NCBI RefSeq assembly: GCF_035083965.1
Contig: NC_089732.1
Span: forward strand, 10,865,424-10,929,423
Length of the DNA: 64,000 bases
Origin: Branchiostoma lanceolatum
Lineage: Eukaryota > Chordata > Leptocardii > Amphioxiformes > Branchiostomatidae
Direction: 5' to 3'
The position numbers were made by a program, and so were the translations under genes. Below, piece after piece: positions 11,253-49,782 of this stretch (the first letter of the stretch is position 1; every line of letters begins with the position of its first letter). Under the pieces are notes generated by a model, which saw only the letters and a program-made list of their open reading frames with translations, was not told the DNA's origin and did not search any database.

Positions 11253-14200
11253 TCACTTGAAGTTGGCGTACATGTCGAAACTGTCCAGATACTCAATCAC
11301 TGCTCGATAACAGAAGTTATACTGGTCCTGTGAGAAAGGGAAAAGGTGATCGGTAACTTGTCACTGACTAGCAGAATACAGAAAATACTACCAGCTTGGT
11401 TACATAAGGAAAGACTCAGTCATGATTAAATGCAAGAGCTACCTCATGCAATGTCTTGATTATAAGATACAATACTATTAGGGTGGTACATTTAACATGA
11501 CTGTTTCAAAGTATCAATAATGTAGAATTCTTCTCAGCTAGGTAGAGACAAACACACACAGACACACAAAAACACATACACACATGCAAGCAAACACACA
11601 TACATGTAGTACTCACATACATACACACACACACACACACACGCACACAGACACACATGCACACAGGACCAAAAAACACACACTCACCACACACACAGAC
11701 ACACAAATACACACACACAATACACACGCACACAATACACACACACAATACACATACATGTACATACAGACATTACTCACCTGAGTCTGCACCATATGGG
11801 GCCTTTGTTGTCTGAGAGCCTTGACAGTCTGGAAGACGTCACAGATCCCTTCAGTCTTCACCCGCTCCAGGATCGTACACAGGGCGATAAACGTTCCTGT
11901 GCGACCGGCACCAGAGCTGAGGAGAATCAGTCACAAAGTTAAGACTACAGTTGGAATCTTGTTAACTCCTCTAAAAAAAACTGCAGACTACAATAAAAGC
12001 TACCAGCCACCAAAAAATCAAGACCACAGCATGTCCCGAACAGGAGATACAAAAGCCAAAAGTTCTGCTGCAGTACAAAGTAAAGTTGCTAGGAGGCTCA
12101 AAATCCCCATTGACCTTCATCTTATTAAACTTACAGTTTGTATCTGCATAACAAACATCAGCATTATCCATCCATAGCTGCATGAGTTACACTGACCAAA
12201 GCAAGTCGGAAGCACTGATACCTAGACACATGCATGTTTTAGATACACATTAAAAAAAATTATAATTGGAAACTTCTAATTACAGAAATGTGATCAGTTA
12301 TCGTAAAAGTTCTAACACTAACAAAAAATAATTATAACATTCTGAAAGTATTTATCTCTCTTATACTATCTGTATGTCTGTCTTGATTGCTGAGATTGTT
12401 CTTAGACCGATGAGCTTATACTCTGTGAGAAATACAACCTTGGAACTGCATTTCAAGGTCACAGTCATTGGGCTGTTGAGCAAGAGCAAGGAAGGGTAGG
12501 ATGTTGACCCAGAAAGGGCACTTTTAAATTTGTCCAGGGGAAACATTTCAAGACCTGATCTTTGCCTTCTGGTGGGGATACCACATCATGATCAGCCCAA
12601 AATTGTGTCAGTTCTGGTTACAAATCAGTTGTAAACTGCCATGATGAGTGTCTAGCAGCACACAAGCCCTGCAGGCACAACTTGGAGCAGTGCCAACTTT
12701 GCTAGGTGTAATCAGGAGCCTGCCTTGCAGACCATGACATGTAAATAAAGAGCCAGATGACACACCTGGTATTTACAGGTGACGCAAGCAGAACTGTGGG
12801 GTTATTTACAGGGCTGACGTCACAAGCTAGGAGAGTACGAGAAAATGGCGGCTGCACCGTCGAGTCTGGGGGAACAAATCCATGAAGAACTGACCTGCAG
12901 CATCTGCCTGGAGCTGTTCACCAGGCCCAAGGTGCTGCCCTGTCAGCACACCTTCTGTCAGGACTGTCTACAGGTATATGCAGAGGTTCAAGTACCCTTC
13001 AAGTGCCCAAACTGTCTTCTGCAGGTCAGATTGCCACCCCAGGGGGTCACAGGTTTACCTGATAACCGGCTGGTTAAAAGTCTGTGTGAGAGGCTGCAAA
13101 ACCAGAGGCTGCAATTCCTCCAGACAGCTGTCTTTCACCCCACAGAAACCTCAGCGGTAGCTGTGGCAACTGTTGCAAGCCTAGGGCTTCTCTTGCTTGC
13201 AGTCTTATTTATACATATCCCGTTGTATGGGATTCATGATAAGACTGAAAAAAAAAGCCCTGCAAGTTACAGTGGAAAAGCGGCACCAACTCCTGTATAA
13301 ACCCAGTCTACTGTTGATCAGCCCACAGACACCCCAGAGCCAGTATTGGGGCATGTCCAGCCTCGCTCCAAAACAATGATTTTTGGTGGATATGGATCAA
13401 GAAATGGACGGTTTCATAACCCAAGTGGCGTTACAGTGTCAGATATAGGGGAGATCTTTGTAGCAGACACAGGGAACAGGAGAATCCAAGTCTTCACCCT
13501 GCAGGGAACATTTGTCTTTCAGTTCCCAACAGTCATTTCTGGTGAACAGCGGATGTACCCACATGATGTGGCCATGGACAGGGAGAGCAACCTGTGGGTG
13601 GTGGGAAAGGAAGACTATGCTGATCATGAGTTTACCATACAGTACACCAAAGAGGGCAGGGTGCTGAGAAGGATTTATCTACAGGATACAGGGCACTTTA
13701 GAGGAGTTGCTGTGGACACCTGGAGAAACCATGTCCTCATCACACAAACCACCTTTTCAGGGCAAAGGCAAAAGTCTGTGAGGTCCAGTGATGATGGTGG
13801 AGTGCCAGATGGAAGTATAAGCATTGTGCGTCAAGAATGGATGGACTGGCTAAGATCGCTATTCTGGCATACACAGATTCAGAATTGGATCGAATTGAAA
13901 CAGCCACAGTACATCACGGTGGATGCGGAAGGCAACATTCTTGTGTCAGACATTGAGAGTCACTGTATCTATGTTTACGACGAGGACGGACAGTTCCGGT
14001 TCAAGTTTGGAGGCATGGGAAGTGATGAAGGTCATCTGTACTATCCCTCTGGCATCTGTACAGCCAGCGCAGGTAACATCATTGTCGCAGACTCGGGAAA
14101 CAGTCGTGTGGAGATGTTTGACAAGACAGGAAAATTCCTCAAACACATCCCTACAGACACAATGTTAAGGAGACCACGTGGTGTTGCTATGGGGCCACAG

Positions 14201-17200: not shown

Positions 17201-20200
17201 TTATTTGTTAGCCATTATAACACCACAGTAGCGTGTGGAATCCGATGGTTAGTAATCTCTGCACCATACAAGAAGTGAAATCCTGGCTATTGTTGCTCAC
17301 AGGACTTGCATACAATTGGAAATGGTTGCCGACTTCACCAATCAAGCAAACGCCAGAAGAATTTGTAGGCCAAAGCTCGTCAAATTTCAAAATTATCCAC
17401 CATATATTTCAATGAAAATTGGACGGGGCTCGGGCCCCCTATGTCGAACACTAGTGATTATTATGTAAATCCACTCTTAATATCCTTCTACTATACTACA
17501 CTATTGTTTGAACCGAGAACTTAAAACACAACAAAAATCTAATTTCCCCTCCTACAACGAAATCAAGCACCTGGAAACATTTACAGTATATCTCACCTTG
17601 AATTCTGTCTCCATGCCCGTGAGGTTGGACCCTGGTTGCTTGGTGTGTAGCCTGTGCATGTACTTGTGCATGTTGGCAACCTCCAGTTCAGTGTCTCCAT
17701 ACAGATGGTGCTCTAACACAGACTGGTAGATGAATATGTACTGGGCCTGGCATTCACATAATTAGACAGTTGTCAGTGAAATTTACATATTACAATACTG
17801 AATAAAGTGGTCTACATTGTATACATTCTTCTTAAATTGTTGAAATCTTAATCAAATGTCCTGTATTTTCTTGTCAACAGCCCTAGCTAGCCAAAAGCTA
17901 GTTGGGAAGTCCTGGCTGTATGTCATTCAAAGCCAAACCAATAAATAAAATAAATCTGCATCTTTAGTAATCAACTGTTAGCACCATTTGATTATGGCAG
18001 AGAGTGCTGAAGGAGATAAGATAGGGATGAATAGCAGACTTGTCTATAGTGGCCATTAATCTATTGTGACTTTTCTTCAAGTCACCTGAATAGCCACTAT
18101 AGACAGGTTTGACTGTGTACAGTCCTTTGCCCTTTCCTTGGTGCTGAAGCGCCAGTATCTATGGTGTCAGCATTCATGATGACCAAACATATAAATCCCC
18201 ACACCTCAGTCTGCACCATATAGCTCCTGTTGTGCCTCATCCTGGCCACACAGCCGAACACGTCGACCTTCTGCTCAGCCGCCATCATGTCAATCAAAGT
18301 GTCAATCACGATGAAGGTTCCTGTCCTGCCCACTCCAGCACTATGGAGAAAATGAATAAAGCCAGATGAGTTGAACCAAGTTGTTAAGTAGATTTTACTC
18401 TAACCAATGAGCGAATAGATCAGATACTGTGACAAAATTGAAAAGGACAGTTGTGATAAGTAAGTGATCAAGCAGGTTATATGTACTAGAGAATATTTCA
18501 CTATTCTGTGCAAGAATAACAAAAGATGACCACAGCTTAAAATGCCCCCACTGCCATGAAATTTGATCTTTAAGCACACCTAAAAACATGCGTAAAGGTT
18601 CTGTTTCTTCACTCTAGTAAAAAAAAAGATCGGATTTCGTGCAGTGATATATCAAGGATGGGTCACTTATGCATACATGTAACCCCTGAACCAAATTACA
18701 CCACATGTCCCCAATACACACTGCAAGTGACACACAATACATGCACATTAATTTTTTTACTTTTACTACACTGTAAAACAATGTACCTGCAGTGCACAAT
18801 GATTGGCCCAGCTCCAGCAGGGTTGGACATCTTCACTCTCTTGACAAACTTCATCATGCCTAGGGGACTCTGGGGGACTCCGAAGTCTGGCCAGCTGGTG
18901 AAGTGGAACTGGGTGATGGTGCGACATTCTTGCAGCTGTGTACAATACAAGGTTAAAGGTATAGCAGCCATCCTCAGCTGAGGTGAAGCATGATGCCTTT
19001 TCAAGTAGCTAGCAGTAGTGCAATGCAGCTTCGCTACGGCTCACGCTTTTAGCCAAGAGGTTTGATGCTTGCCATCTTGCAACAGGTGCTAAATCTATCA
19101 CCCAAAACATGTTCAAGGAGGTGTCCCCTGAATGTGTACTAAGTTTCTGTTCTGTACAGGCTTTTTAAAGACCCCAGTAAAACTATATAAATACGGGATA
19201 ATGTAAACTATAGCCTTCAGTATGCGCCTGGCAGCCGTACAGTGCACATCAGTGGAGGCCTGGCTGAGAAAGTTTACCATGTACAAGTTACTCTTCAAGT
19301 CATGTTTGAATTCTATAGATAACATATAAGAATTTGAAGTATGGCTACACATAAAGAAGTTAGCTTGAAGGACAGTTAGCCAAGAAATAAAGTAATGACA
19401 ACACTGGCTTGCAATTTAGTTTGAGACATTGGCTAGCAGTTATATGTACTGTTCTACAGAGCCCTATTCTATGCTGGTTACAACAACAAGAAGACGCAAA
19501 AAATCGCAAGTCATATTTCTAGACACACAACCTAGGCTAATGTTGGGAAGACATTGGAAATTTATATCCATTTAGACACTCTAACACAACGTTGACAGGG
19601 TCGATTTGAAAGTTTGAAAATTTGAACAAGTTTGGCTTCCCCCAAACTGAAAGTTGTAGATAGCATTGTCTTGATTATCCAAGGGATCTTATCTGATTGA
19701 AACTTCCTTGGATCATGTGACTTTTTGATAGATATCTGGGCCATTCTGCATGGTTTGATACTGTTCATAGAAAAACCAGTACAGAAAAAAGTTTGAATTC
19801 TCTGACAGTTATTATGGTAATCTGTCCCTGCTATTGTCCCAGGCTGGCAGACATCTAATCCTTTTATGAATTTATGTGGTTATGGGGGATTAATCCAGCC
19901 CTCAACCTGCTGGGCAGCTCACAGTAGGAGCACTCCCTTTACGACTTCCCCAGGGCAAGGTTTTGGTTCCTTTAAGTCCCATATTCTAGCAAAATATACG
20001 GCACGGCCACTCCGTAAACATTATCCCTACCTGAAGATGCTCAACGGTCAGAGTCCTGATGACAAAGTCCACTAGTCTGACCACATCGGTCACCTCCACA
20101 CTGACGTCCCCATACTGACCGATGCCTTCCTCTGGCCAGTATTGATGACACTTTGCCTGCACGGGAACAGAGATGAAACTATTTTTGTATTTTTTGTAAT

Positions 20201-20360
20201 TTTGTATTTTTTGTATTTTTGCTTTGAATATAGTGCATCAGCGCATGACTGACTCACAGTTACAGTAATTTTTTATTGTGGGATGCACCTAAATACAGTT
20301 ACACACATGCACACACACTAGCACACACACACAGACCTACCTACACACACACACACACAA

Positions 20361-20397
<37 letters not shown>

Positions 20398-23300
20398 CAC
20401 ACTAACATCAACACACATACACACACACACCTATGTATTCAATGTGATTTTTTGGAAGTACTGTAACAGAAAATCATAAAAATCTTTACCTTGCTTTTTT
20501 CAGCCAGGTTTGTTACCATGACAACAGTGGCAGAGTTTTGCTCCCACACCATTCTCCAGAAGTCACTCACTGTTTCCTTCCTGGGACCTGGGAGAGATAC
20601 ATTCATTTACAAGCAGTTTTGGTACATGTAGACATTGTTGTCCAATCTGTATCTTTATCTATAACGTTATATCCGGTACAACCAGTTTTGCAGGCATACG
20701 GCACAACAGCAGCTGGTTATATTACACTGAACGACCTGTCACACCTAGTCTTTGCACGTCTTACTGTAAGCATTGTTTAAAGCAATCCGATGATGATGCT
20801 CCTACAGTACTTGGTGACAACGAGTTCCAGTATACAATAGTTCTAGGGGAAAATGACTTTTCTGAACACCTCAATTGTGGGTAATGTAATGTATCAAAGG
20901 ACAAAAAGGTAGGAAAAAAAGGTTTAACATTTTCACATGCTACTAATCATTTTTTTCTTGGGGTCTTTTTCTGACAACTATTACAACACGTGCATGAATA
21001 TAATTCTCATTATATTGAAATGGCAGCACACAGGTTACATTGTAGTATTATATGTGTACACTCAAAAGCCCTTTACCTTGTGATGCTATAAACTTGTTAG
21101 GGACATCGTAACCCTGCTCCAAGAGAAAGTGGAAAGAATAGCATAAAATGACAAAATCAAAATGGAACTTCCTTTATGTAGTATATACACAAGGACAATA
21201 TATGAACATGTAAGATAAGGTATCTTTACATGGTGCATGGAAGAATGGTTGATAAAAATGCTTTCTAATTCAGTACTGGCAATTAAACACAAATATCACA
21301 TAGGAAAGCAAAAGAAATATATTCAAGGTAGTACATGATGTGACATGTAACGTAATCACCGAATAGATTTGCATTGCTGCAAACGTATTTTGTAATGAAG
21401 GATTGTCAGGACTGAAAAGCAACTACATGTAGCTATAATGTTATCCGGCATAGTCTTTTAGGCTGACTGACAGATAGACAGACAACGATTTCTCACTCAC
21501 ATCAATGAAAGAGGCATTGATGTAATCACTCCCAGGCTGGCCTTCAATGGTGGACAGAACAACACGTGCACGGTCATCTGTGTAGGGTAGAATGAACAGA
21601 AACAAAGCTTTGTTTGTTGTTCAATTCTAATCTTAAATTACGAGGTAAGTGAACCCCATGATATCACATTCAAATACTGATAACATTTCCAGGACCTAAT
21701 ATCTAAGAAGCTTAGTTCTCACTATTATAGTCAAGCTGTCATTCAGCACAAGGGACAGTAAGTCTGGTGCTGAATGACAGCTACATGTACACCACCCTGT
21801 ACTGTCCTTGGTGCTGAATGACCAGTGCACTGTCCCAAAGAGAATTGCCTTCACTGGAATTATGTTTAAACAATCTGCAGTCTAATTATTGTTTGTATCT
21901 TAGGTTTATATGATGTAGCATCTCGAGTACTTCACTTACAGGGCAGGATGTTGGCAAATCTGTTCTTGACCTTGTTCTCAGGAAGTGAAAAGGCATCGTG
22001 GGAATGGGCAAGCTTCTGGGGTAGAGTCTGCAGCAAGATTGTGTATGTAATGGTAGGAACCTTGTCTAGCCCTTTCACTGCATTAAACAATACAACATTA
22101 AACTGTACATTGGTTTAGAATTAGACATGCTGAATTTGTGATGCTCAATTCAAGCTTACAAGATGTGAAAGATAATGAATGTTCTATTCTTTGTTGCAAT
22201 GACAGCAAAGTTCAATTTGTCAGTCACAATGATGCTATTATTTAGATTTCACTGTTTTCACAAACAGAAACACAGTTGGGAAGTCTGTTCCAGTCTTAGA
22301 AAATATGATATATCATCATCATCCACTGGTTTCTGCATCTGCAATGACTGTCGTAGAAACGCCCTGCAGAACTCTGCATTCAGTCTTTCTTCATCTCCTT
22401 CCAACTTGACTTTAGCTCCTGGAGTTTCTTTTCTGTTGTAGGGGGGCCTCGCCCTTTGTGCTTTAGATCTCCCTTCAGCATGCTGAGTAGATTGACACAG
22501 TGTCTTCCTTTGCATGCTTTGTATCTGTTGGAACCTAATATCACATATTGTATGAATTGAAGTGTTGAGACTTACATACCTCATATTCCTCCTTGAAGAG
22601 TTGGTCATCGTTGGCGTGTCGTTTGTTGTACTCCTCCTCCAGTCTGTCCAGGGGGATGGGGGAATAGGCCGCTGGCGAGGCGTTATAAGCAGCGGTTAAT
22701 TAGGTTAGTGTGATTAGTACTGTACACAACAGGGGTTAGTCACACGCTTACATGCTATGCACCTATTTGTAGACCTAAAATAATAGGAAACAGATGAATG
22801 AATTGCACTGTATTGAATTCATTTTCCTGCTTCTGTTCAAGAATGGATGAAAAAAATCATTATAAGAGAGGGGCTGTAGAAATGGAAATATTTAAAAAAA
22901 TTTGAACCAGGAAAAATTTTGAAAGAAAGCTAAAAGACGTCAAGCAGTCTACTGTGGAATTAGACATAGACGAAAACAGGACAGCGGAGTTACTGCTGGC
23001 TAAAACCGATAGTTAGGGCCTTGCATAGACAGAATACAGCACAAGATGAAATGAAATACAACATTTGTAAGAATTATCAAAAAGCAAGTTGTTTGATATC
23101 ATAAATTATGATATTTGACCAGGGCTGTCTCCAGGACCTATTCCTCCATTTTGGGACGGAAAATTTGCTTGTGAGGATGAGAAAAAAATGGCACCTTGTC
23201 CATCCAAAAAATGTGAATTCATGACATGAAATTGATAAAAATTCATTTTTCTAAGCTTGACATAAAGATTACCCCCCCCTCAAAAAATTAACCCAAACAA

Positions 23301-26300: not shown

Positions 26301-29300
26301 CATATGTCTTCAATTTCTGAGAATGGATACATTCAAATTTTTGAAAACCTTCACCAATACCTTCCGTCAATGGAAAGGAAGATTTATCACTTTTTTAGAT
26401 AATATTTTCTGTAGGAAGATTCTTAGTGTTGATTATGTAAACCTAGTTCAATTGCTTGCAGGTTTCATTCTCACATAATACACTTAATTTCTTTAACACT
26501 CCAAATCTCAGTGCCAACTTAACCTTCTCCCTGCTGCTTAACTCTGTAATCAATAGGGAATTTAGTGCCAAATGGCTACTTCAGTGTGCTAAAGGTTAAC
26601 AGGTCTTTATACAATTGACTCTGGAGTCCCTGAGCTCCTGAGGAGGGGCTGTGACTTACTGTACAGGTCCATACTGTTGTGAAGCTGGCTGGAGAGTGAG
26701 AGGGAATGTGGTGGAAGTGATGTTGTCCAGGATGGGGACAGGAGACTCGGGCTTGGCTGGTTCTGTAGAAACAATTTCAGGAAAAAGTTTTTGATTTTAG
26801 TGTTTTCAACTGAAGATCTATTTGTTTTATGCAACATGTTGAGGTTATCAGGAACACTCCCAGATTTTAGTTTGAACAATTACTCAAACTAATAAAATCT
26901 ATATCACATCATTAAGATTCAGAAGTTATATTTGGTAGTGAATGCAAAACCAATATCATAGCTATTTAAACCCATTCCTCGTCCAAATATTTCACATAAT
27001 TTGGCTCAACATGTTGTCAAGAATAATGTCTGCTAAGTGAAAGTCCTTACTGCCAGGTGGAACAGTTCAGTACCCAGAATGGCTGTGATTGCCTTCTCCT
27101 GTGTAGGTGGTAAATCAAGATACAGTAATTTGGCTAAAACTGTTGTCAGGTTACTACGTTGTAAGTAAAAGTCCTTACTGCCAGGTGGAACAGTACAGTA
27201 CACAGGTTGGCTATGGTTTCCCTGGCCTGTGTAGGTGGAGGCTGTCACAGTGATGCTGTAGTTGGCATTAGGCTTCAGCTCTTCCTCCACGAGTCCAGTC
27301 TTCAGCAGGGTGACAGAGTCAGAGGCGTGGGACACCTCAACTTGGTCCCCAAAGCTGCTGTAGTCGGCGCCATCTAGTGGATTCCAGGTGTAGTACACCT
27401 AACAGAAAGTACAAGACAGTGAATCCCTTTTTCTTCAATTTAAGCATAAAGCTTGACCTCTCCTTGAAGAAAAAGAGACTTTGCTCTTGACAGTGTGAGA
27501 TGCAAACATGACGTAAATAACAAGTACAAATAGACCACTCTTACTGTCCTTGGTGCTGAATGATAAATACATTCATACCATACCTACTGTCCTTGGTGCT
27601 GAACGACAATTATATATCTAAATATACTTTCTCATTGAGGCAATGATCAATATAATACATGTAGAAAGCTTTCTATCATAGACATGAGCAGGCTGCATCA
27701 ATTTTCCTCTATTGCTCATGCAAATATTCAACTTACTCCTTCAATATGAGGTAGTGGTAAAGAATAAGACTCGTCTTACAGTATACTTGGTGATGGTCCC
27801 ATGTGATTTTTCTGGTGGACTCCACATCACCTGGCATGCTGCATCTGTGTCATTTTTCTGAACTTCTTCAGGTGCTGTGGGATCTAGTTAAAATGCAAAG
27901 GAGATACAGGTTCATACAACTAACTTACAAACATCTGCTTTCATTTAGTCTTTGTTTGTGTTGGATGAACAACTTAGTGGTGATTGTTGTTTTTGGTTCA
28001 GGTCTAAACTTGGTTCACTGATGTTTAGTTTTTTTGTGCCTGGTCCAAAGTGATATTCTGATTCAGTACACACCCCTTATTACAAAAATCATGGAACTGT
28101 TATGCCACAACATCATTCTTGGATTATTTCAACGCAAGTATCTTACTTTTGTATGCTTAACATCATGGGCATAAATGGTCATTTGACCACTACCTATAGG
28201 TATTAGTTGTTTTACTGAGTTTAACTTCATCTCATATGTATCTAACATCGATGTGATAAAATAACTCCAAATAACGTCAAAATGGTGTGAGTACTTACAC
28301 CCATCACTGGTGGTCGCCTCCACAAAAACCTCTTCACTTGGGTATTTCCCATTATAGGATTTGATCTAAGAAAAGAAAAAAAAAGTGAATCAAAACATCT
28401 TGTGCTTTACTTCTTTCTAGCTTTCTTTGCTCAATGCATATGTAACTTCACTGTTAATCTCCAAGCAGATTTTTTCTCCAGAACAGGGAGCTTGAAAAAC
28501 ATTACGATTTTGCATTTCTTCATCTGCTTAGAGGTTGATTTATTGCACAAACTGTTGAAAAACTATACAGAATCTCCAACACTTCATTCTTTCTTTCATC
28601 TTTTATTTCAGGTACACAACCCATAGCCAGACAATACACACTTGACAAACATACAACAAGCCATATACATGTTCCTTTGTTTTAGTTTGATATCTTGAGG
28701 ACTTGATGTAACTGATACCTTTTTCCTTCAGACAGATCTGAAGGCACAAAATTTTCATTTCCTCTTACCTCTACTCTATACTCTGTAGCAGGATCCAGAC
28801 GGTCTATGATGAGCGAGGTTCCGATGTAGTTCTGCCGACCGTGGTCCCACACCCATGTTAGCCCTCCAGGCCTGTACAGGTCCACCTTGTAGTTGATGTA
28901 GGGGCCTAACACGAGCTCAGGTCTGCCCCAGGTCAACTCTAACTGGTGCCAGGAGACGTTCACAAGCCGCACATTTCTTGGCACAGATGGAACTGCGTGG
29001 ACAAATACCCCACAAGATAAAGGGAAGGCTTAAGATTCCACAGCAGGATATGCCATTGAAAGCTGAGGCAGCCTTTTGGCTCCAAAGTTGTATTGATTAT
29101 GCTGTTAGGCAGCGGGGAGGGGTTAAAGTCCCTTGGTATCTGGGCTGACTCCTTTTGTAGGGCACTGGTGGCCAGATTAGGATGATTTTTGCTTACATTC
29201 ACTGCAATACAATTTGATAAGATCTGCCCCATCAACATGCATTACATGTACATCCTGAGTTGCTTATCATAATTTGAAGCTTACAAATGAGATTCTAAGG

Positions 29301-32300
29301 TCTAAATGTAAGTAGAATTTTGCAATCCTCATATGTATGAATTGAATAATCTTTATCATAATGTTTAAAATATCTCTTAAAGGCAAGTGTAATTTTGCAA
29401 TCATCAAAAGTTTGAATTAATCCTAGTTATTACAAGGTTTAAGATATCAAGGTTAGTCCAAAGTGATGTTTCCTGATTTAATCATTGGTAACTGCATGCT
29501 TATATACCTCCTGGTTCTGTCTGTAACACGATAGGCTCGCTCCATTCCCCTGAAATTTCTTCCAGCACAGCTTGGACAGAGAATGTGTAGTTGGTGAACA
29601 CCTAAAATAACATTAAAACAACATTAAAACAACTTAAAGACATTTTCACAGTACATATAGTCATCATAATCACCACAACCAAGTGTTTCGTTCAAGCCGA
29701 CATTTCGGTGACCGTCTGTCACCTTCCTCAGGGCAATACTGACTGGTTCTATCTCACACTGCAGCAGGGCGTGCAGATCGCGGATTGGGCTACACAGACA
29801 CATGTGAGCCTACAAAGGAGGACTGACTTCTCATTGATCTTTGAAAACAAAAAAAAAGCCATCATGATGCATTTGTTTCTTCATGGCAGTCGTTTTTTAG
29901 TGAAACAAAAATAGTTGTTTTCTCCAGTCCTTTACCGAAACCTGTATATACCTGACGTTACGTTAAAGGCACCCAGAGCATTTTATAAGACCAGAAAATT
30001 GGAAATATTCTAGTTGGTGTAATCTTTATGAAATTGACAACTAATGCCACTGTTTACCACATTTGCGTTAGGATTTCTTTTCAAAAGTGCACAAAAACGG
30101 CACAAAAATAATCTACAGTTCATGGTAATCTTTTAGTTTCACGCGCCTAGTCTAAATACTGTAGATACCATAGCCCCATCCACCTTCGTCAAAACGTAGA
30201 AATGCAAATTTAAAACATTAAAAAGCAAATATTTGATGGACATGCAGCACTCTCTCATTGGTCGAACCGCTAATTGTGATGGACAGTCAGGATCAGTCTA
30301 TCAGGGCTCGGATTTTCTATCAGTACTCACCACACAACGACATCGTATCTTTGCTCATTCAATTTCCATATGTAATGGTATAGTGTTATTGCAACTTACT
30401 ATCTGTAGGAATGACTAGAAAGTTTAGTTTTTTATTCAAGTTTCAAGCCTCATAAAATGCTCTGGATGCCTTTAACAGTACTACAGGAAACAAGGATATG
30501 TCTACCTGTAGACCTCCCACTACTGCTGGTCTGATGTTATCTGATGTCTGACGTATAGTCTGTAGTTCCGCTGGACCAGAGGTTTGACTGTACTTGATGA
30601 GGTAATATTTGATGTCACCGCTGAAGTCTTCAGTGTGCAGAGACCAGGTGAGCTTCGCACTGTTGGAGTCAGGCGGAGGTAGAGGGGAGACTGTCGGTGT
30701 GACTTCATCCGGACCTGAGGAAAAAGTGGTGACGAATTTGAGGACTTAAAATGTGTTTTGGAGGTCAGGAACATGTCTAGCCTTGTCCACATAAGGCCAT
30801 ATGAGAGCCACCCCACATCTGTAAATATATTTGTACATTAGTGAATAAAGTGATGGACCTCAAGCGTTTGTCAGTCAAAGTTCTGACAAGGCAACCAGCT
30901 GGTGTAGACATCTAGTCATTCTACAAGACTAATGCAATTAGGACTTAATGAATGTATATCATACTTGCAAAAGGGTTCCTTAAAATCAAAGAAAACAGTC
31001 AGGTCGACATAAAGTCATCTTGTAAACAATACCTAAAAAGCTATACTACATACAACATTTAGAAGGAGGTAACATAGCACAACCAGTTATCATGCACTAC
31101 CAATTATAGGTCACTTTGGGTTACAAACTCATAATCAATAAACAACAAAATAAGACATGATCTTTATTCATGGGCCTCCTTTATATAAAGCAATGAAATA
31201 AGTTTACATCCAGCAACACAACAGAATTAACTCCTAAAGCCATAACAACAACTTACCTTGAAGATTCATGCATGCTGTATTTGATATATAATTGGACACC
31301 ACGTAGAACTATGCTAATTGACTGTCAGTTTAATAAGGTAAAGAGTCTTCTGTTGCACATGCTTACTGATACAGCTGTGACCATCTCCTGCCAGCTGCAA
31401 GTCGGTACCACAGGTGCAGGTGTAGCTGCCAGGTGTGTTGACACAGGTGTCCTCGCAGTTGTAGTCACCTGCTGCACACTCATCCTTATCTACACACAAA
31501 CATGAGATGAAAATGAAAAGTAAGGAAAGTGAAGAAATTCAACTTTCCCGAATGGCTCAATGTTGCTAGCTATCACTGCATGCTATTACTGAATTTGAAA
31601 CCCGTATGACTTGTCGTGTTGCGGTGCCTTGTTTAGAGTTGCAAGAATACTGACCTATTTCGCACCTGTCTCCCTCCCAGCCACCTGTACAGCTGCAGTC
31701 CAGTTGGTTGTAGGTGGAGGAACATGTCCCCCCGTGGAGACAGAAGGTGCCCGTGTTGCAATCAGCTGTATTTGTGGGAAGAAATCAAACCTATCAAGAG
31801 ACTTATCCTTAATGAAAAATGATAGCAACTCATTAGAATTGAATTATGAAATCATCTCTTATAATAATACACTTGCCATTCCAAACTAGTTGTAATTAGA
31901 AAAACCTCACTAAAATCATTTTCAAAAATTGATATCTTCTTGATATTCCAAGTGACTGGTACCAGTACATGTAATACATGTACTGGTACATTGTATGTTT
32001 TGGATTTTTATCTACATTTAGGTAATGGCAACATGTAAGTTTTCAGTTCCTCAATATCTATGATGCTAAACAGTTATATGCACTCTCACAGTGCACAGGG
32101 AACTTCAGGGATGACTAGGAGAAGGAGTGGGCTTGATAAGAGTTTTAATGCTCTAGATTGAAACTATGTATAGTTCAACAACACGAGCTAGCAAACGCAA
32201 ACTGTAGTTGAACTTGTGACAAACTTTGTGCAAGTCAAATGAGGTTAGAGTTCAGTGGATCTAATCAAGTAATTGAGGTAGGTTAACTTTTAGCATAGCA

Positions 32301-35300
32301 GTTTGGCATCCAATTCCCTATTAGTTACAGAGTAAGGTAGCAGGGAGAAGGTTAAAGGTTCTAACATACCAATCTGACATGACTCTCCAGTCCAGAACTC
32401 CTGACACCCCCCAGTACAGGCTCCAGTCCTGATGTTACAGGCTGACGGTCCCTCGGCACAGTGGCAGGCCTGAGTACAGCCTGCTCCATACCAGCCCTCA
32501 GGACAAACTGGAATAGCAGAAAATATTCACTCGCATTATGTCCAACAATGGAGCACAAGATACAGGTTTAATACAGTTTGGTATGGTTGATGATAATTGA
32601 ATCTCCAGTCTGTAAAGATTGCCTTCATCAGGGCAAAGTGAATGTTTTTAATCGTATCGTGACGTAATTATCATGACAAGGATGAAATTTGGACGTTTGG
32701 TAGTGAAAAATAAGACTGCGTATCTAAAAAAAAATATGTTCAAAAGATAACATCTACTAACATAATTCCACCGGGGTACATAATTCCGTCACCCTGAAAA
32801 GATACGTCCAAACAGATCTCCAACCCAACGGCCCCCAGTATAATTCACTCCTGTAACGTTATATCTAAACAGTGCAAACCTGGGGAGTGCTTCACTAGAT
32901 TAGAGACCACTGTTTTTCAGAGTGGCGGATTTATGTAACCTCACCTGTAGTGCACTCTATGCCCATGAGCCCAGCAGCACAGGAGCAGCCATACGGGTCC
33001 GTCACACAGAGCAGCTGACCCGTGCAGTCTCCATCGGTGCACTGTCTGGTACAGGTGGTGCCGATCTTGTTATCTGCACATGCTGTGGGGCAGGAGGAAA
33101 GGCGTTTCATACCAACGTTCAAACGTGTCAAACTTTTTTACTACACTACATTGTACCAGCAGGCACATCACAAACATCATGTTTTTAGTTGGTAAAAAGC
33201 TGCGGACAACCAAGGATGTAACTCTCTTTGGTTAAGTCAAGACAACTCAAGGAGTCTGGTATAGACTATTTGAGCCTTTGCCTACTAACCACAAGCCTTG
33301 CATCTGCTGTACATTTTAAGAAGATATTTGGTGCTGTCCTTGGTGATGAAATGACCATCAAATGTGTTTCTTACAATGAATTGACTTAAGGAACATCCCA
33401 AACATCTCATTTTCATTGGACCAAATGGAAAAGCTGGGGTTTAACCCTTTGTCAACAAAACAGCAGCCATGCATTTGCTGTTAAATTGAAAAAAGATGCT
33501 TGGTTTACTATTCTTACACTGTAGGACATTTATTTTCAAGGAGACTTTCGTAGCAGAAGGGGAAAGGAGGTTTTTGCAATGTTCACGGTTGAAACAATTC
33601 TGTAGCAGAGTAGAAATACATTGTAAACATATCTTTGCCGTGTTATGAATTTGTGGTAGAGAGATCACCACCAAAACCATGGAAAAAAAGACCACAGCAA
33701 ATATTTCAACATAATCATACAGTATCTTAATTCTCACCACTTTCACAGTAGAAGCCGTGGAATCCTGGAGGACAGACACATTCCCCAGTGTTGTCGTCAC
33801 AGACTCCACCGTTGTAGCACACAGGGCAGTCCTCAGCACAGGACGGGCCCCACTTGTTCTCTGGACAACCTGCAGGGGTGATCATTAAGACAAAACATAC
33901 TGGATTCTAGAAGGTATGGGTCAATAAAAAAGGAATTTATATTAAGGGACCATCAAAAAGTGACCACAAATCTCCAAGCAAATTTACTGGTGGTATGACA
34001 GTATCCAAAGGGGTAAAAATCCAAAGAGCTTTGGGAATTTTTTTTCCCTTTAGATACTGTCATGCCACCGGTAATTCTGCTTGGAGATTCGGCCAGGCAG
34101 TTCTTATGTAGAGGTGGTCACTAGTAAAGGGTTTACTGTTAATGTATAGCATTGACTCACTGTATGACTGAAATTTGTTGTCCAGAATAAAACAAATCAA
34201 TTTTTTTTAAATTCCAAAAAGTTTCTTAAAACTTCAAGCATTCATCTAAATCAATATGCTAAAAACGTCTAAAAAGATATAGAACTTTAAAACGTCTAAA
34301 ATGATATATGTTGATAGAGTTATTAGGACTCAAATGACTGTGTATCTCTGTTATATTGTAGCTGACCCTTACCCCTTCCCTCATGACCTCAATGAAAAGC
34401 GGCCTGCATGCCGATTTGAGCTTATCATGAATAAACAAAGGTTCAAACAAACAAACAAACAAACTTTAACAACATGCAACTTTACCTCTCACAATGAGCC
34501 TCATGATGCCTTGCTTTCCGTCATTAAACCCTTGATAGTAGCACTCATAGATCCCTTCATCTGAAGGCTGGACACTGGCTATGCTCAGGTTGAGTTCATT
34601 CTGTCCTTGTAAGACAGATCCTAACGTCCCGTCCTTTCTCCACTCCAGCATACCGGTTCTGTCGGACTTCTGCTCCATCTGTAGGGTCACAGGGTCACCT
34701 ATGTTCGCTGTAACTGTGAAGTCTGCTGGCCAAACGTCAGCTGAAACAACAAGTAATTCCTAAGTCTTTGTTTTAACTTGTGTCTGCAACATATAGTCTC
34801 TACCAGATTAACTACACCGACTATAGGGAGAATATTTGCCAGGGAAGTTTGGCCACCATAGGGTTTCATTACCATTGATGGACTGCCTCTACAGGCCAAT
34901 CATTCCTTTTTTTTGCCAAATTCTATGATCCATTGTAGGAAGGCCTGGAGGAGGCTATGCAACAATATCTAAGTTTATCAACCAATCATGTCTTAACATT
35001 GACACACATGGTACAATAAACTTGGCACTTTTCTAATAGATTATGGACACAGCTTCCAAAAAGTTGTGCATCAGAGGACAAGTTGGTTAAGTTGTCTATA
35101 TACATGGAAAAGAGACTGCTGCAAAGAAATGGCTCACTAATAGGCACATCTGTTTTGCTTTAGCCTTTGTTTGTGTTGGATGAACCAATTAGTAGTGTTT
35201 GTTTTGTGTCAGGTCCAAAATCGGTCCACAGAGGTTTAGGTTTTTTTGTACTGGTCCACTGTGATTCTTAGGGGACAAGGAGGGCAAGGTGAACGCAAGA

Positions 35301-36792
35301 GAAATTGCTACAATGGCGGTCGTTTGAAAATCTTGGACAAAACTTGTGGTGGACTGCACTGCACTAATGATGAGAGTGGTTTTCCAGACCCACCCCTTGT
35401 CTACTCACTTTCTGACTTCGTTTTCAAGGCAATGCAGGCCCTCATAATGTATTTGCAGAAAGTTTTGGAGGAAAAAGTTCTGACAACTTGCATCATTGCA
35501 GGTTACAGAAAAAATATTTGGAGGCCTGATCAGCAATAGGCCATGATTACTCACCCTCCGATTTCATTTTCAAGGTGATGGCCTTTTCTATCGTTCCATC
35601 AGAGCTCTTCACCTGACAGGAGAACGCCCCCACCCTGAAGTCACGTGACTCGTCCCAGATCTTGACGCTCTTGGCTCCGGCAGAGCCGCCACTATTCCTC
35701 TTCTTTGTAAATGTCCTTCCCGCGCCGGTGTTGACCTCAATGCCAAATGGGTACCTGAGGTATCACAAGACATCCATATTGAAGCTCCAGGACATACATG
35801 TGTACAGTTACTTATTGATTAGATAACATAAGAATTTTTGGATATGGAATCGGACGAGATTTTGGAAGAGACATAAAATGGGGGTCTTAGAGCATGTTAC
35901 AACCACCACCTCATTACTCAGATGGGTACCTACGAGCTGTACATGTATGTAATAATACAACAAGGTGAATATTCATTTGCTTAAACTGTATGTACCAAGG
36001 CATAGACCTGGACCTCAGGATCTGTTCTCATGTTGTTCTTCCAGTCAGCATAACTCTTTTTTTTAAAATCTGATATTACCAACAGATTAAATTGTTGTGG
36101 ATAAATGTTAAAAAAGAACAGGTACCTGTTCTGGTTGACAACACTTCCGGTGTAATAACAGTACAGCCATGTGTCCGCTAACTCCTCAAAGAACTGGAAC
36201 TTACTGACGACTGTGACATCTACAACACCTGAAGGAAAAATAACAGGGCTTCTTTGTTATGTGTCTGTAATATTCATGATTTAGGACAACAAAAAATCCC
36301 AGATTCAGAATGCTTCTACCTTTGATTGCTATTTGATCCTGACATAATCAATTCTGATTTATTGATTTGATTGATTGATGTTTTAGTCTTACCATTGGCC
36401 TGAAAAGATTGGGAGACATTTCTTTAACCCTTTGTAAAAAAATGAGCCATGAAAATCCAATTTTCAGGGGAGGGAGGGATCTTGTCACAAGAAATCAAAA
36501 CATGTGTAACTTCCAATTAACTGGACTTTAGATGATCTTATTACTCACTCAAGTACTGTACAGTACACATGGTGGTATCATGGTTTTTCAGAGTGAGTCT
36601 TTGTAAACCATGCATTATAAGTTTTGCATGCTTTCAGGGATCAATCTGAAAACATCTGCTGACCAAATTTTCAGAGTTTCAGTTTCCTGAGATTTCACAG
36701 AGGTGGTATACTTAGTATGACCTTAACCTACCTTCTGTAGTGTGTAACACTAGAATCAACGTCCAGGCCAGCAGTGCTCCCCTGCCTTCCAT
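11253..36792 (-). CDS. Receptor protein tyrosine phosphatase with Tie-like ectodomain (complete, 38 exons)
   Basis: Start ATG 36790-36792, stop TGA 11253-11255. Every exon has AG/GT borders and all phases match. Coding total is 4659 bp, 1552 aa. Order: signal peptide (1-21), Ig1 (22-121), Ig2 (122-206), five EGF-like modules (207-420), three FN3 (421-726), a membrane-proximal region with a furin-type RRKR (834-837), TM helix (about 903-928), basic stop-transfer residues, PTP D1 (about 971-1265) and D2 (about 1300-1552). It should dephosphorylate phosphotyrosine proteins at the plasma membrane. The cytoplasmic half resembles PTPRA/PTPRE (motifs [17 protein letters not shown], final YANFK). The Ig-EGF part resembles Tie receptors ([27 protein letters not shown]). 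The ligand is unknown. Exon coordinates are in the block entries. An alternative reading as two fused neighbouring genes is unlikely because phases run through. Confidence 0.88.
11546..11757. repeat. Imperfect (CA)-rich tract
   Basis: A long compound ACAC repeat with interruptions lies in the last intron of the phosphatase, about 25 bp from the donor of exon 11781-11916. Non-coding in any frame. Confidence 0.9.
12815..12822. promoter_or_regulatory. CRE-type palindrome upstream of nested gene
   Basis: A full TGACGTCA site lies 22 bp before the ATG at 12845. CREB/ATF proteins bind this sequence. Its position fits a core promoter of a compact intronless gene, but it also lies in the phosphatase intron. 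Function inferred only. Confidence 0.4.
12845..14260 (+). pseudogene. RING finger + NHL repeat gene interrupted by one in-frame TAA
   Basis: Part one (12845-13300, 151 codons) encodes a C3HC4 RING (C18, C21, C33, H35, C38, C41, C54, C57; [16 protein letters not shown]) typical of ubiquitin E3 ligases, then [14 protein letters not shown], as in amphioxus TRIM-like proteins, and a hydrophobic helix (about 103-126). TAA at 13298-13300 stops it. The very next codon continues the same frame, open to 14260, with NHL repeats (NPSGVTV ... [21 protein letters not shown] ... [21 protein letters not shown]). B-box and coiled coil are absent. One alternative is a 150-bp intron 13157-13306 (G|GTAGCT ... 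ACCCAG), which would remove the stop and the helix in frame. Otherwise it is a recent pseudogene, a null allele, or two proteins. It is nested antisense in a phosphatase intron. Confidence 0.75.
15230..15540. repeat. SINE-like dispersed repeat (family A, copy 1)
   Basis: Sequence from about GCTTTGCTACAGCTCACAGA through CACTGCACCACGTGGACACG matches, in inverse order, 38155-38400, and shorter pieces at 19015-19085 and 47030-47175 share the GCCAAGCACA and GATAAGTGTGTTGGG motifs. Lies in a phosphatase intron. No reading frame. Confidence 0.55.
15935..16045. repeat. Dispersed repeat (family B, copy 1)
   Basis: AACATCTACTACATAATTCC through CCTGAAAAGATTCGTCCAAA matches 32752-32860 with about one change in ten. 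Both lie in phosphatase introns in the same orientation. Confidence 0.6.
16812..16912 (-). repeat. tRNA-derived SINE head
   Basis: On the minus strand it reads TTGGTATAACGGCAGG, then GGCCCAGAACCCAGAGGTCC and GGGTTCCAATCCC, an A-box/B-box-like pair. The same head is seen on the plus strand at 58236-58300, so this is a repeat family rather than a functional tRNA. Confidence 0.55.
20298..20440. repeat. (CA)-rich tract
   Basis: Compound ACAC repeat in the phosphatase intron next to exon 20490-20587. Non-coding. Confidence 0.9.
21739..21836. repeat. Intronic repeat family C, with inverted end
   Basis: Unit TGTCCTTGGTGCTGAATGAC, spaced about 44 bp apart. Here an inverted unit (GCTGTCATTCAGCAC) is followed by two direct ones. 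Further units are at 24638-24720 (two), 25795-25820, 27538-27610 (two) and 33335-33360, nearly all in phosphatase introns. Confidence 0.6.
23651..23831. repeat. 181-bp inverted-repeat element
   Basis: Left AAAGCGCTTACC then CCAACAAGCTTTCGACCAGT; right arm is its complement ending TTGGTAAGGGCTTT. Arms of about 70 bp continue through the GATTTGACCCGA motif. Sits 77 bp upstream (minus strand) of exon 23453-23574 in the phosphatase gene. Confidence 0.75.
24638..24720. repeat. Intronic repeat family C, two units
   Basis: Two units of about 44 bp (TACTGTCCTTGGTGCTGAATGA then TACTGCCCTTGGTTCTCAATGA), each followed by AGCTACAT. In the intron on the 5' side of exon 24504-24558. Confidence 0.6.
26519..26599. 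repeat. 81-bp TTAA-flanked MITE (copy 2)
   Basis: Same orientation and length as the copy at 5380. It lies in the intron of the phosphatase gene next to the exon at 26660-26762. The ends TTAACCTTCTCC and AAAGGTTAA form short terminal inverted repeats. Confidence 0.65.
27003..27112 (-). pseudogene. Decayed duplicate of the end of FN3-3 exon
   Basis: A tandem copy of 27131-27238, offset by 128 bp, includes the 3' part of exon 27179-27398 and its donor (GGCA|GTAAGG). On the minus strand the copy still reads TYTGEGNHS, but a frame change/stop (GGG TAC TGA) follows. It could not extend the FN3 domain, so it is a dead exon copy in the next intron. Confidence 0.7.
27538..27610. repeat. Intronic repeat family C, two units
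   Basis: Two units about 46 bp apart, each with ACTGTCCTTGGTGCTGAA, in the intron between exons 27780-27883 and 27179-27398. Confidence 0.6.
28456..28536. repeat. Short TIR element (CTCCAAGCAGAT family)
   Basis: Left AATCTCCAAGCAGAT, right CATCTGCTTAGAGGTT. About 81 bp, in a phosphatase intron. Same ends as the large fold-back element at 6254-8887. Confidence 0.55.
29690..29790. repeat. Dispersed repeat (family D, copy 1)
   Basis: Contains CGACATTTCGGTGACC, CACCTTCCTCAGGGCAATAC and GACTGGTTC. The inverse order of the same motifs is found at 59245-59335 in ABCD3. Confidence 0.55.
32283..32355. repeat. TTAA-flanked MITE (copy 3, inverted, shortened)
   Basis: Reverse-oriented copy in the intron just 3' (left on plus strand) of EGF exon 32370-32507. 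It is about 8 bp shorter than the others because of an internal deletion. Confidence 0.6.
32752..32860. repeat. Dispersed repeat (family B, copy 2)
   Basis: Second copy of the repeat at 15935-16045, with ATAATTCCACCGGGGTACAT and CACCCTGAAAAGAT landmarks. Confidence 0.6.
33969..34089. repeat. Short TIR element (CTCCAAGCA family)
   Basis: 121-bp near-palindrome from AATCTCCAAGCAAATTTACT to TTCTGCTTGGAGATT, with inner arms TATGACAGTATC / GATACTGTCAT. In the intron upstream (minus strand) of EGF exon 33738-33869. Confidence 0.7.
34486..36792 (-). other. Phosphatase exons 1-4: signal peptide and two Ig-like domains
   Basis: Coding exons: 36732-36792, 36126-36228, 35555-35754 and 34486-34740. Exon 1 encodes a classic signal peptide ([15 protein letters not shown]). 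A likely UTR acceptor (CCATCCAATAG) puts the mRNA exon border near 36848. Ig1 has a cysteine pair (C44 in LYCYYTG, C101 in FSCQVK). Ig2 keeps the tryptophan (LEW155) and DEGIYEC (C188) but has no cysteine at the first canonical position. The last residues before the EGF block, IVRG, are placed as in Tie receptors. Confidence 0.85.
34797..34958. repeat. Dispersed repeat (copy 2)
   Basis: Diverged copy of the element at 5955-6153, in the intron immediately upstream (minus strand) of Ig exon 34486-34740. Begins TAGTCTCTACCAGATTAAC and ends GGAGGAGGCTA. Confidence 0.5.
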
Positions 36793-48808: not shown

Positions 48809-49782
48809 GTCGATACTGCAGCTGGAGATGACTTGGTGATAATGTCAGGGTTTGGTCTGTAGGAGCTGCTGCAAGGAGGTTCCATTCAACCTCCTTTTGG
48901 TAGGAGTTGCAATGAAGACTCTCTACATCACAAGCACTAAGGACTTTTCCAGAGGCTGATGGAAATGAGTCTGCAAATTTAAATCCCTTGGGGATAGTTT
49001 CTGGAACCAAAATGAGGAAAAATGCATGATTGCGTTATTATAAATCACCAGAGTACTGTATTTCTTGACTAAAAATTCCACTAGATTACTAGGAAATGCT
49101 TGGGCCAATAACTCTTAGGCTGAAGTGATAATCAGTCGAAATCATAGTTATCCATTGATTGATTGATAGATTGTTTGTTTAATTGATTGATCCCTTTCAG
49201 TTCTTCCCCGAGTTCGTTCTTACAAAAGCGGTGTGGGAAAATTCAAACGAAGAGTCACATGCGGGTGTGGGAACATTCTATCAGTGAGTTGTCATCTATG
49301 GGCTCTGTACCCCACAGATTATGCATAGTTGTCAATGATCTCATTGATTGATAAAACAATCTCCTACTGTACTTGCAAAAGAATTCCTATCCTCATAATG
49401 TCAAGCTCACTTTATATAACATCAACAAAATCAAGAGGTTCTCACTTTTAAGAATCTAGCTGGTCCTCCTGATGCCTTCTGTTGGACCAGCTGGCTAGAG
49501 AGAGCTGAGAGTCCCACTGACCTGGCATTGACCCCACCAGGATTATTCTATTAAAAATATAGAAAGGGGGCACAATAAATGAAACTTTATCTAAGAAAAA
49601 TGTATACAAAGGAATGACATGGAAAAATTAAGAAAAAAACTGATAATTAAAGAAGTTATGATATTATCATCAAAATTTCAATTATTCCAAAATCTTCGAT
49701 ATTCTAAAATCATCCCTTTATGAATGGAATCGTCCGCATTGCGAAATAGAAGATAGAAGGCATTACCATCATCATCATCATC
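48809..49782. promoter_or_regulatory. Divergent intergenic region between oxidase and ABCD3
   Basis: 974 bp separate the two outward-facing start codons, room for one shared regulatory region or two close promoters. No TATA box or other definite element was identified. A trinucleotide (CAT)n run directly precedes the ABCD3 ATG, so its leader carries this repeat. A possible minus-strand exon (49446-49547) lies inside. Confidence 0.5.
49446..49547 (-). other. Candidate 102-bp exon upstream of oxidase
   Basis: On the minus strand: acceptor TTTTTAATAG, an open 34-codon stretch (NNPGGVNARSVGLSALSSQL...) and donor AAAA|GTGAGA. It does not read in frame into oxidase exon 1 by any splice I can see. 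It may be a 5' UTR exon of the oxidase, an exon of an unrecognised gene, or chance. Confidence 0.3.

What the first reader, a model, noticed from the sequence alone, without database searches (positions are those of the whole stretch)
11253..36792. Tie-like ectodomain fused to a PTPRA/PTPRE-type tandem tyrosine phosphatase
Seen: one continuous 38-exon reading frame runs from a signal peptide through two Ig, three Tie-type EGF modules ([30 protein letters not shown]), two more EGF and FN3 domains into two PTP domains with R4-type motifs ([22 protein letters not shown] end). Known: Tie ectodomains belong to receptor kinases, and R4 phosphatases in vertebrates have short glycosylated ectodomains without these modules. 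Inference: exon shuffling (EGF introns all share phase 1) gave a receptor that reads a Tie-like signal but removes phosphate. This could be a chordate counterpart or competitor of a Tie kinase.
Basis: partly seen in the sequence, partly recalled or inferred. Interest (0 to 1): 0.88.

Follow-up and report, generated by a model that had tools for sequence, protein, structure and literature searches.

The report
Amphioxus phosphatase wearing a Tie-like head
A lancelet gene joins the ligand-binding front end known from Tie kinase receptors to a phosphatase that removes the mark kinases add, and related front ends also sit on lancelet kinases, which suggests that opposite enzymes may listen to related signals.

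Summary
One 38-exon gene (minus strand, 36792-11253) encodes 1552 aa with 37 GT-AG introns in consistent phase; a Branchiostoma lanceolatum protein annotated PTPRA matches it end to end at 1518 of 1553 aligned positions. Residues ~124-341 align to Tie2 Ig2-EGF1-3 (E 8e-41). The tandem phosphatase falls in the PTPRA/PTPRE (R4) clade. Of 114 full-head proteins among the 120 best hits, 40 carry a phosphatase and 29 a kinase. This gene's head belongs with heads on amphioxus fibrinogen-domain and kinase proteins, not with heads on other amphioxus R4 phosphatases (AU p 2e-42). Similarity to those proteins stops within about a residue of the exon 7/8 junction (342.3) in 10 of 13 comparisons, so exons 2-7, a phase 1-1 block, probably moved as a cassette. 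A related phosphatase and kinase of B. lanceolatum share the whole ectodomain, partly as a mosaic. Best reading: part of a kinase/phosphatase paired-receptor set. Ligand, expression and activity are untested.

The parts
11253..36792 (-). whole coding span, 38 exons, 4659 nt CDS, 1552 aa receptor phosphatase
   Evidence: spliced model with 37 GT-AG introns; P0001 identical at 1518 of 1553 aligned positions
36732..36792 (-). exon 1, start codon and signal-peptide-like sequence (residues 1-20)
   Evidence: recognised by eye, no predictor was run
32370..36228 (-). exons 2-7 (966 nt coding, phase 1 to phase 1): Ig1, Ig2 and EGF1-3, the Tie-type head cassette
   Evidence: Tie2 match to Ig2-EGF1-3; heads on amphioxus proteins with other tails 73-83% identical in Ig2/EGF1-3 in the closest cases; break at residue 341-343 in 10 of 13 comparisons
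31367..31765 (-). exons 8-9: EGF4 and a calcium-binding-type EGF5
   Evidence: Pfam EGF_CA 380-419 below curated cut-off; Notch, NELL2 and coagulation-factor EGF pairs among solved structures
27179..30714 (-). exons 10-15: fibronectin type III region, about residues 421-726
   Evidence: Pfam fn3 E 3.9e-33, 3 stretches
24504..26762 (-). exons 16-20: membrane-proximal region, with furin-like RRKR at residues 834-837
   Evidence: weak Pfam PTP_tm, E 0.0057, below cut-off; an RxKR/RxRR site in the corresponding part of 11 of 11 relatives that I chose; its place before the membrane was compared with hydropathy for five of them
24276..24372 (-). exon 21: transmembrane segment (about residues 903-928)
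   Evidence: hydropathy maximum, sequence
22580..23574 (-). exons 22-23: juxtamembrane region with the R4-like [19 protein letters not shown] stretch
   Evidence: aligned to PTPRA
17597..22027 (-). exons 24-31: phosphatase domain D1 with WPD (1157) and [10 protein letters not shown] (1190)
   Evidence: Pfam 1018-1249; motif positions
11253..17160 (-). exons 32-38: phosphatase domain D2 ([18 protein letters not shown]) and C-terminal YANFK
   Evidence: second Y_phosphatase stretch; motif positions; alignment to PTPRA to the last residue

Best explanation
A transmembrane receptor phosphatase of the R4 catalytic clade that carries a Tie-type Ig-EGF head. Most likely the head binds an extracellular ligand related to those of the amphioxus kinases with similar heads, and ligand or neighbour binding changes clustering of the receptor, so that D1 removes phosphotyrosine from those kinases or their shared substrates (Src-family kinases being the usual R4 target, recalled). 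It would then be the 'off' half of a paired kinase/phosphatase receptor set made by swapping head exons. Shown: domain order, intact D1 motifs, head kinship with fibrinogen-domain and kinase proteins, breakpoint at an exon junction. Inferred: ligand, direction of regulation, substrates, co-expression.
For: One gene and one frame. Tie2 is the best solved-structure match for Ig2-EGF1-3; in Tie2 the Ig2 domain binds angiopoietin (recalled). D1 keeps WPD and [10 protein letters not shown]. Heads on amphioxus proteins with other tails are 73-83% identical to this one in Ig2/EGF1-3 in the closest cases, kinases P0007, P0009, P0010 and P0024 among them, while FN3 identity is about 25-30% where FN3 matches. 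Heads of amphioxus R4 phosphatases as one clade rejected in two data sets (p 2e-81; p 2e-42, where the set included the B. floridae orthologue model P0002, which lacks the phosphatase part). Break at 341-343 in 10 of 13 comparisons, exon 7/8 at 342.3. Kinase and phosphatase heads intermix on the tree: at least 9 changes among 37 labelled rows. A paralogous pair, kinase P0030 and phosphatase P0034 of B. lanceolatum, shares 69% over the whole ectodomain; in residues 701-1050 the phosphatase groups with the kinase rather than with its own orthologues (98/95; sites 51 versus 25).
Against: No ligand, binding, expression or activity data. The rows nearest this head on the trees are fibrinogen-domain proteins (P0004, P0005, P0006, P0016) and P0011, named a kinase but without a kinase match seen; proven kinases are the next group out. 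No amphioxus kinase was seen whose whole ectodomain matches this gene; FN3 is 25-30%. Kinases P0007, P0015 and P0030 score with FGFR as well as or better than with Tie2. Direction of transfer is open: this gene's head as sister to the other 13 is not rejected (p 0.40). Exon and domain boundaries coincide, so the break alone does not prove recent exon movement. For the paralogue, exchange is seen with kinase P0030 but not with kinase P0039 (sites 73 versus 96). The relatives are mostly computed gene models. In D1 the KNRY tyrosine is F.
Confidence: 0.45

Rival explanations
1. Adhesion-type receptor phosphatase: the head and FN3 rod mediate cell-cell or matrix contact, as in the LAR and kappa/mu groups, and the kinship of the head with kinase heads is only history, without a shared ligand.
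For: Ig-EGF-FN3 rods and a furin-like RRKR site before the membrane are typical of adhesion phosphatases (recalled); 39 of 114 full-head proteins have neither kinase, phosphatase nor fibrinogen domain.
Against: The head is closer to heads on fibrinogen/kinase proteins (73-83% in the closest cases) than to those on the other R4 phosphatases P0031, P0034 and P0052 (60-64%), which suggests the head itself has been kept similar.
Confidence: 0.3
2. Ordinary domain mobility: amphioxus R4 phosphatases have acquired many ectodomains (fibrinogen, sushi/MAM, PAN, Ig), and the Tie head is one more, with no signalling logic in common with the kinases.
For: The amphioxus R4 clade (25 rows chosen by me) carries fibrinogen, sushi-MAM, PAN, Ig, Tie-head and short ectodomains (Pfam columns). 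The heads nearest this one sit on fibrinogen-domain proteins.
Against: The whole-ectodomain kinase/phosphatase pair and the mosaic pattern in residues 701-1050 point to continuing exchange between kinase and phosphatase genes, though in a paralogue.
Confidence: 0.2
3. Decoy: a secreted ectodomain form is the main product. Retention of intron 20 would end the protein before the membrane.
For: B. floridae P0002 (870 aa) ends NNEAGQCTHLVTTGY, as read-through of exon 20 would; the window's own read-through gives [14 protein letters not shown] and a stop. No other model with this gene's phosphatase part at over 65% identity is among the 120 listed by either phosphatase search, though the 8 members of the P0001 cluster cannot be seen.
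Against: P0001 runs through the membrane exon and both phosphatase domains, and D1 keeps its catalytic motifs.
Confidence: 0.05

Closest known systems
PTPRA/PTPRE (R4 receptor phosphatases)
   Same: Tandem PTP domains in one chordate clade (SH-aLRT 99); PTPRA 814 bits versus PTPRS 638; D2 KNRV and C-terminal YANFK
   Different: About 900-residue ectodomain of Ig, EGF and FN3 instead of a short glycosylated one (the latter recalled); D2 has WPD where PTPRA has WPE
Tie2 (TEK) and Tie1 receptor kinases
   Same: Ig2-EGF1-EGF2-EGF3 in one contiguous alignment, E 8e-41; FN3 domains further on
   Different: No kinase; no third Ig after the EGFs, two other EGFs instead (Tie layout recalled); the first Ig was not in the query, so its kinship to Tie2 was not tested
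Tie-headed non-R4 phosphatases of echinoderms, hemichordates and chelicerates, and amphioxus P0025 (annotated PTPRT/F/K/D-like)
   Same: Same head type on a receptor phosphatase
   Different: Catalytic half in a separate clade of 11 rows (SH-aLRT 100); D1 39-51% and D2 38-40% identical to this gene's for those shown
Amphioxus Tie-headed kinases (P0007, P0009, P0014, P0015, P0024) and fibrinogen-domain relatives (P0004, P0005, P0016)
   Same: Head exons: Ig2 and EGF1-3 61-81% identical
   Different: Fibrinogen, FN3, Ig or PAN/EGF middle parts and, in the kinases P0007 and P0015 scanned, SAM plus kinase tail
Amphioxus R4 phosphatases P0031, P0034, P0052
   Same: R4 catalytic half and a Tie-type head
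   Different: Head from another head clade, 60-64% identical; P0034 has a further Ig after the head and is the ectodomain twin of kinase P0030

Membership tests
R4 receptor phosphatase (PTPRA/PTPRE) | tandem PTP domains that group with PTPRA/PTPRE | tested here: met
   (chordate R4 clade 99; amphioxus R4 95; SH-aLRT of a quick tree)
R4 receptor phosphatase (PTPRA/PTPRE) | catalytic D1: WPD and [10 protein letters not shown] | tested here: met
   positions 1157 and 1190; pTyr loop reads KNRF, not KNRY
R4 receptor phosphatase (PTPRA/PTPRE) | C-terminal YANFK tyrosine (Grb2 site in PTPRA, recalled) | tested here: met
   position 1548; sequence only
R4 receptor phosphatase (PTPRA/PTPRE) | short glycosylated ectodomain without modules (vertebrate definition, recalled) | tested here: not met
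   about 900 residues of Ig, EGF, FN3; 7 N-glycosylation sequons. So it has an R4 catalytic half but is not a canonical R4 receptor
Tie receptor kinase | Ig2 plus three Tie-type EGFs | tested here: met
Tie receptor kinase | third Ig between EGF3 and FN3 (recalled) | tested here: not met
   EGF4-5 there
Tie receptor kinase | tyrosine kinase domain | tested here: not met
   two PTP domains and no kinase match
Tie receptor kinase | binds angiopoietin | not testable with these tools
   no binding data
R2A/R2B receptor phosphatase (LAR; kappa/mu/T) | catalytic domains closest to that group | tested here: not met
   two-domain chains: PTPRS 638, LAR 630 versus PTPRA 814 bits; D1-only chains: PTPRK 313 versus PTPRA 404
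R2B receptor phosphatase | MAM domain at the N terminus (recalled) | tested here: not met
   no MAM in the Pfam scan

The most novel reading that the evidence does not exclude
Amphioxus holds a set of paired kinase and phosphatase receptors whose ligand-binding heads are kept alike by exon shuffling and gene conversion, so that one ligand family drives both phosphorylation and dephosphorylation, the enzymatic analogue of activating and inhibitory paired immune receptors. This gene is one inhibitory member. Similar swaps in echinoderms would make it an old deuterostome strategy that vertebrates lost, keeping only Tie kinases.
Probability: 0.28. Interest if true: 0.92.

Novelty: new variant of a known kind. 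Interest (0 to 1): 0.72.

Why it matters
Vertebrate Tie2 is opposed in trans by VE-PTP (PTPRB), a phosphatase of another class with another ectodomain (recalled). A lineage in which an opposing phosphatase carries the kinase type of head would make it directly testable whether kinases and phosphatases can be tuned as paired receptors, and would recast the Tie head as an old, mobile cassette of bilaterians rather than a kinase invention. The exon 7/8 breakpoint gives a clean case of a phase-1 cassette found on enzymes of opposite action.

Tried and rejected
Considered and rejected or left open: (a) two neighbouring genes run together: P0001 spans both halves and every splice phase agrees, though cDNA is still needed. 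(b) A chance EGF resemblance to Tie: the alignment is contiguous over Ig2 and three EGFs, E 8e-41, while the next solved structures, Notch-type, best cover the two later EGFs. (c) R2-type (LAR, kappa) catalytic half: lower scores. (d) That the phosphatase took its head from a kinase: the first tree put it inside the group (98/87), the longer-head tree did not settle it (p 0.40), so direction is left open. (e) A whole-ectodomain kinase twin of this very gene: none seen among the first 60 hits printed by region; its paralogue P0034 has one. (f) tblastn for further copies of its exons in the window gave one partial repeat at 27150-27004 and one weak match. Dead ends: no genome held; no RNA families and no tRNAs; sea urchin phosphatase, amphioxus kinome and domain-shuffling papers not held. 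Trees used rows that I picked by hand: 50 of the 114 full-head proteins plus the window, 46 phosphatases plus the window, 20 heads plus the window, 7 proteins for the twin. In one search the kinase or phosphatase labels follow names and Pfam columns; P0011 was labelled a kinase by name alone. In the kinase searches one EGFR entry, 9p9u, heads the lists by summed score with no stretch that passes alone; I set it aside.

Full report
WHAT IS THERE. On the minus strand, 38 exons from 36792 to 11253 splice to 4659 nt and 1552 aa. Every intron is GT-AG and every junction keeps phase. A protein annotated PTPRA from Branchiostoma lanceolatum (P0001, 1553 aa) is identical at 1518 of 1553 aligned positions across the whole length; the one extra residue lies at a GAGCAG double acceptor of exon 26. 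The window is therefore from a Branchiostoma genome, most likely B. lanceolatum (inference). Pfam finds two Y_phosphatase stretches, three FN3 stretches, an Ig (131-189) and EGF matches, the Ig and EGF matches below the curated cut-offs. The first Ig has no Pfam match and is assigned by position and kin. A furin-like RRKR lies at 834-837; 11 of 11 relatives that I looked at have an RxKR/RxRR site in the corresponding part, and for five of them it lies before the hydrophobic segment found.

HEAD. Residues about 124-341 align without a break to Tie2 Ig2-EGF1-3 (2gy5), E 8e-41; the next solved structures are Notch fragments that best cover EGF4-5. The head search listed the best 120 of 823 proteins. 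Of these 120, 114 hold a full head (at least 161 of 221 positions); of the 114, 40 carry a phosphatase, 29 a tyrosine kinase, none both, 13 a fibrinogen domain (7 of them together with a kinase), and 39 none of the three. By the names they come from amphioxus, echinoderms, hemichordates, chelicerates, a myriapod and vertebrates, apart from a few unnamed ones. So the Tie-type head is a mobile module and not a mark of kinases.

CATALYTIC HALF. Best solved structure PTPRA, 814 bits, then PTPRE 739 and PTPRS 638. In a quick tree of 46 chosen phosphatases and the window it lies in a chordate R4 clade (SH-aLRT 99) inside an amphioxus R4 expansion of 25 rows (95), whose members carry Tie-head, fibrinogen, sushi-MAM, PAN, Ig and short ectodomains. 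The Tie-headed phosphatases of echinoderms, hemichordates and chelicerates, with amphioxus P0025, form a different clade of 11 rows (100); several of those rows are long branches. D1 has WPD and [10 protein letters not shown]; its KNRY loop reads KNRF. D2 has WPD and [10 protein letters not shown] with KNRV; the protein ends in YANFK.

WHERE THE HEAD COMES FROM. Against amphioxus proteins with other tails this head is 73-83% identical in Ig2 and EGF1-3 in the closest cases (kinases P0007, P0009, P0010, P0024 and P0049, the last over part of the EGFs; fibrinogen-domain P0005 and P0016), lower in others (down to 64% and 46% in P0028), whereas FN3 regions are about 25-30% identical. Against the Tie-headed R4 phosphatases P0031, P0034 and P0052 the head is 60-64% identical although their catalytic halves are in the same R4 expansion. 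On a tree of 51 heads it lies in an amphioxus clade of 19 rows (100/97) of fibrinogen-domain and kinase proteins, nearest to P0004, P0005, P0006, P0011 and P0016 (98/87), in none of which the kinase motif search found a kinase; the P0031/34/52 heads join kinases P0030 and P0039 in another clade (98/99). Holding the R4-phosphatase heads together is rejected: lnL lower by 232.7, p 2e-81; with a longer head, 21 rows and the orthologue model P0002 in the set, lower by 184.8, p 2e-42. Kinase and phosphatase labels change at least 9 times over 37 labelled rows; counted apart, 4 times over 19 amphioxus rows and 3 times over 14 rows of other invertebrates. That this gene's head is nested among the other 13 of its group rather than sister to them is not established (p 0.40).

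BREAKPOINT. A two-segment fit of identity along residues 200-480 was run against 13 relatives. The break falls at 341-343 in ten (P0003, P0005, P0007, P0009, P0010, P0014, P0015, P0021, P0024, P0034), at 345 in P0016, 351 in P0030 and 331 in P0019. Support intervals are wide for P0010, P0016, P0019 and P0034, and that of P0030 (346-358) leaves the junction out. Exon 7 ends at 342.3 in phase 1, and exons 2-7 are a 966-nt phase 1-1 block. The 5' break lies near residue 20, the exon 1/2 junction, in P0007; P0005 and P0010 also break there, but their models seem to lack a signal peptide and do not count; the rest are imprecise or uninformative. Since exon and domain boundaries coincide, the break fits exon shuffling but does not by itself prove it.

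A KINASE/PHOSPHATASE TWIN. The paralogous phosphatase P0034 and the kinase P0030, both from B. lanceolatum, are 69% identical over about 1080-1180 residues, that is the whole ectodomain, then fall to 11-24% after the membrane. In 14 of 21 windows of 50 residues up to position 1050 P0034 is closer to the kinase of its own species than to the phosphatase P0031 of another amphioxus (for example 96 versus 74 at 801-850), in 6 it is the reverse, 1 is equal. In residues 701-1050, 51 sites side with the kinase and 25 with the phosphatase orthologue, and the tree groups P0034 with P0030 at 98/95; in 351-700 the phosphatases stay together (with P0054), and in 1-350 the tree is poorly resolved. With the second kinase P0039 the site counts do not favour exchange (73 versus 96 over 1-1050). 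I read this as a mosaic, hence gene conversion or recombination between a kinase and a phosphatase gene; gene models could mislead.

FUNCTION. The most likely mechanism is a receptor phosphatase whose head senses a ligand related to that of the kinases with similar heads, and whose D1 lowers phosphotyrosine on them or on shared substrates. Only the anatomy and kinship are shown. Kinases P0007, P0015 and P0030 match FGFR chains best once an EGFR entry without a single passing stretch is set aside; Tie2 is within about 5 bits for P0015 and not among the 60 rows shown for the other two. They should not be called Tie kinases without a kinase tree.

LITERATURE. Ten searches of the held library listed no title on Tie-headed receptor phosphatases. 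I saw listings, and passages of five papers. PMC13409769 (passages) reports a Tie-2-like kinase and a receptor phosphatase F-like protein together in starfish coelomocytes and comments on counterbalancing activities, without discussing their ectodomains in those passages. PMC5336234 (passages) covers R3 phosphatases and found none in amphioxus. Key older papers (sea urchin phosphatases 2006; amphioxus kinases 2008 and domain shuffling 2009, both recalled) are not held, so priority cannot be judged from here.

VERDICT. Observation right, and the novelty lies more in the swapping than in the fusion: a new variant of a known kind, with an open and testable paired-receptor hypothesis.

Noticed in passing
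window 12845-14257, + strand: Inside intron 36 and antisense to the gene lie a RING finger reading frame (12845-13297) and an NHL-repeat reading frame (13301-14257) in the same frame, parted by a stop: a TRIM/NHL-like intronless pair, perhaps a decayed retrocopy.
   Followed up: partly
window about 46826-48844, - strand: Fragments that look like a D-aspartate/D-amino-acid oxidase gene upstream of the receptor; DAO Pfam match E 3e-11 for the first exon fragment; the finer name is recalled.
   Followed up: partly
window about 57498-58805, + strand: ABC-transporter exon fragments resembling a peroxisomal ABCD gene (recalled likeness); weak ABC_tran match for one fragment, no Pfam match for the other.
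   Followed up: partly
window 27150-27004, - strand: Partial repeat (48% identity over 50 aligned positions) of the end of FN3 exon 15 just downstream in intron 15, a possible remnant of an exon duplication.
   Followed up: no
window 24558-24504, - strand, and P0002: B. floridae model P0002 seems to lack the equivalent of exon 19 and ends as if it read into intron 20, which would give a soluble ectodomain; the window's own read-through also ends soon.
   Followed up: partly
proteins P0030 and P0034 (B. lanceolatum): A receptor kinase and a receptor phosphatase share the whole ectodomain and a mosaic pattern suggestive of gene conversion.
   Followed up: partly
proteins P0003, P0007, P0008, P0009, P0010, P0024, P0049: Amphioxus receptor models that hold a Tie-type head, a fibrinogen C domain (the fold of angiopoietin's receptor-binding end, recalled) and a kinase in one chain: 7 of 114 full-head proteins.
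   Followed up: no
tree, starfish rows: Starfish kinases and phosphatases also have near-sister heads (P0071 with P0022/P0072, 100/100; P0091 with P0093, 100/99), so head sharing across enzyme types recurs outside amphioxus.
   Followed up: no
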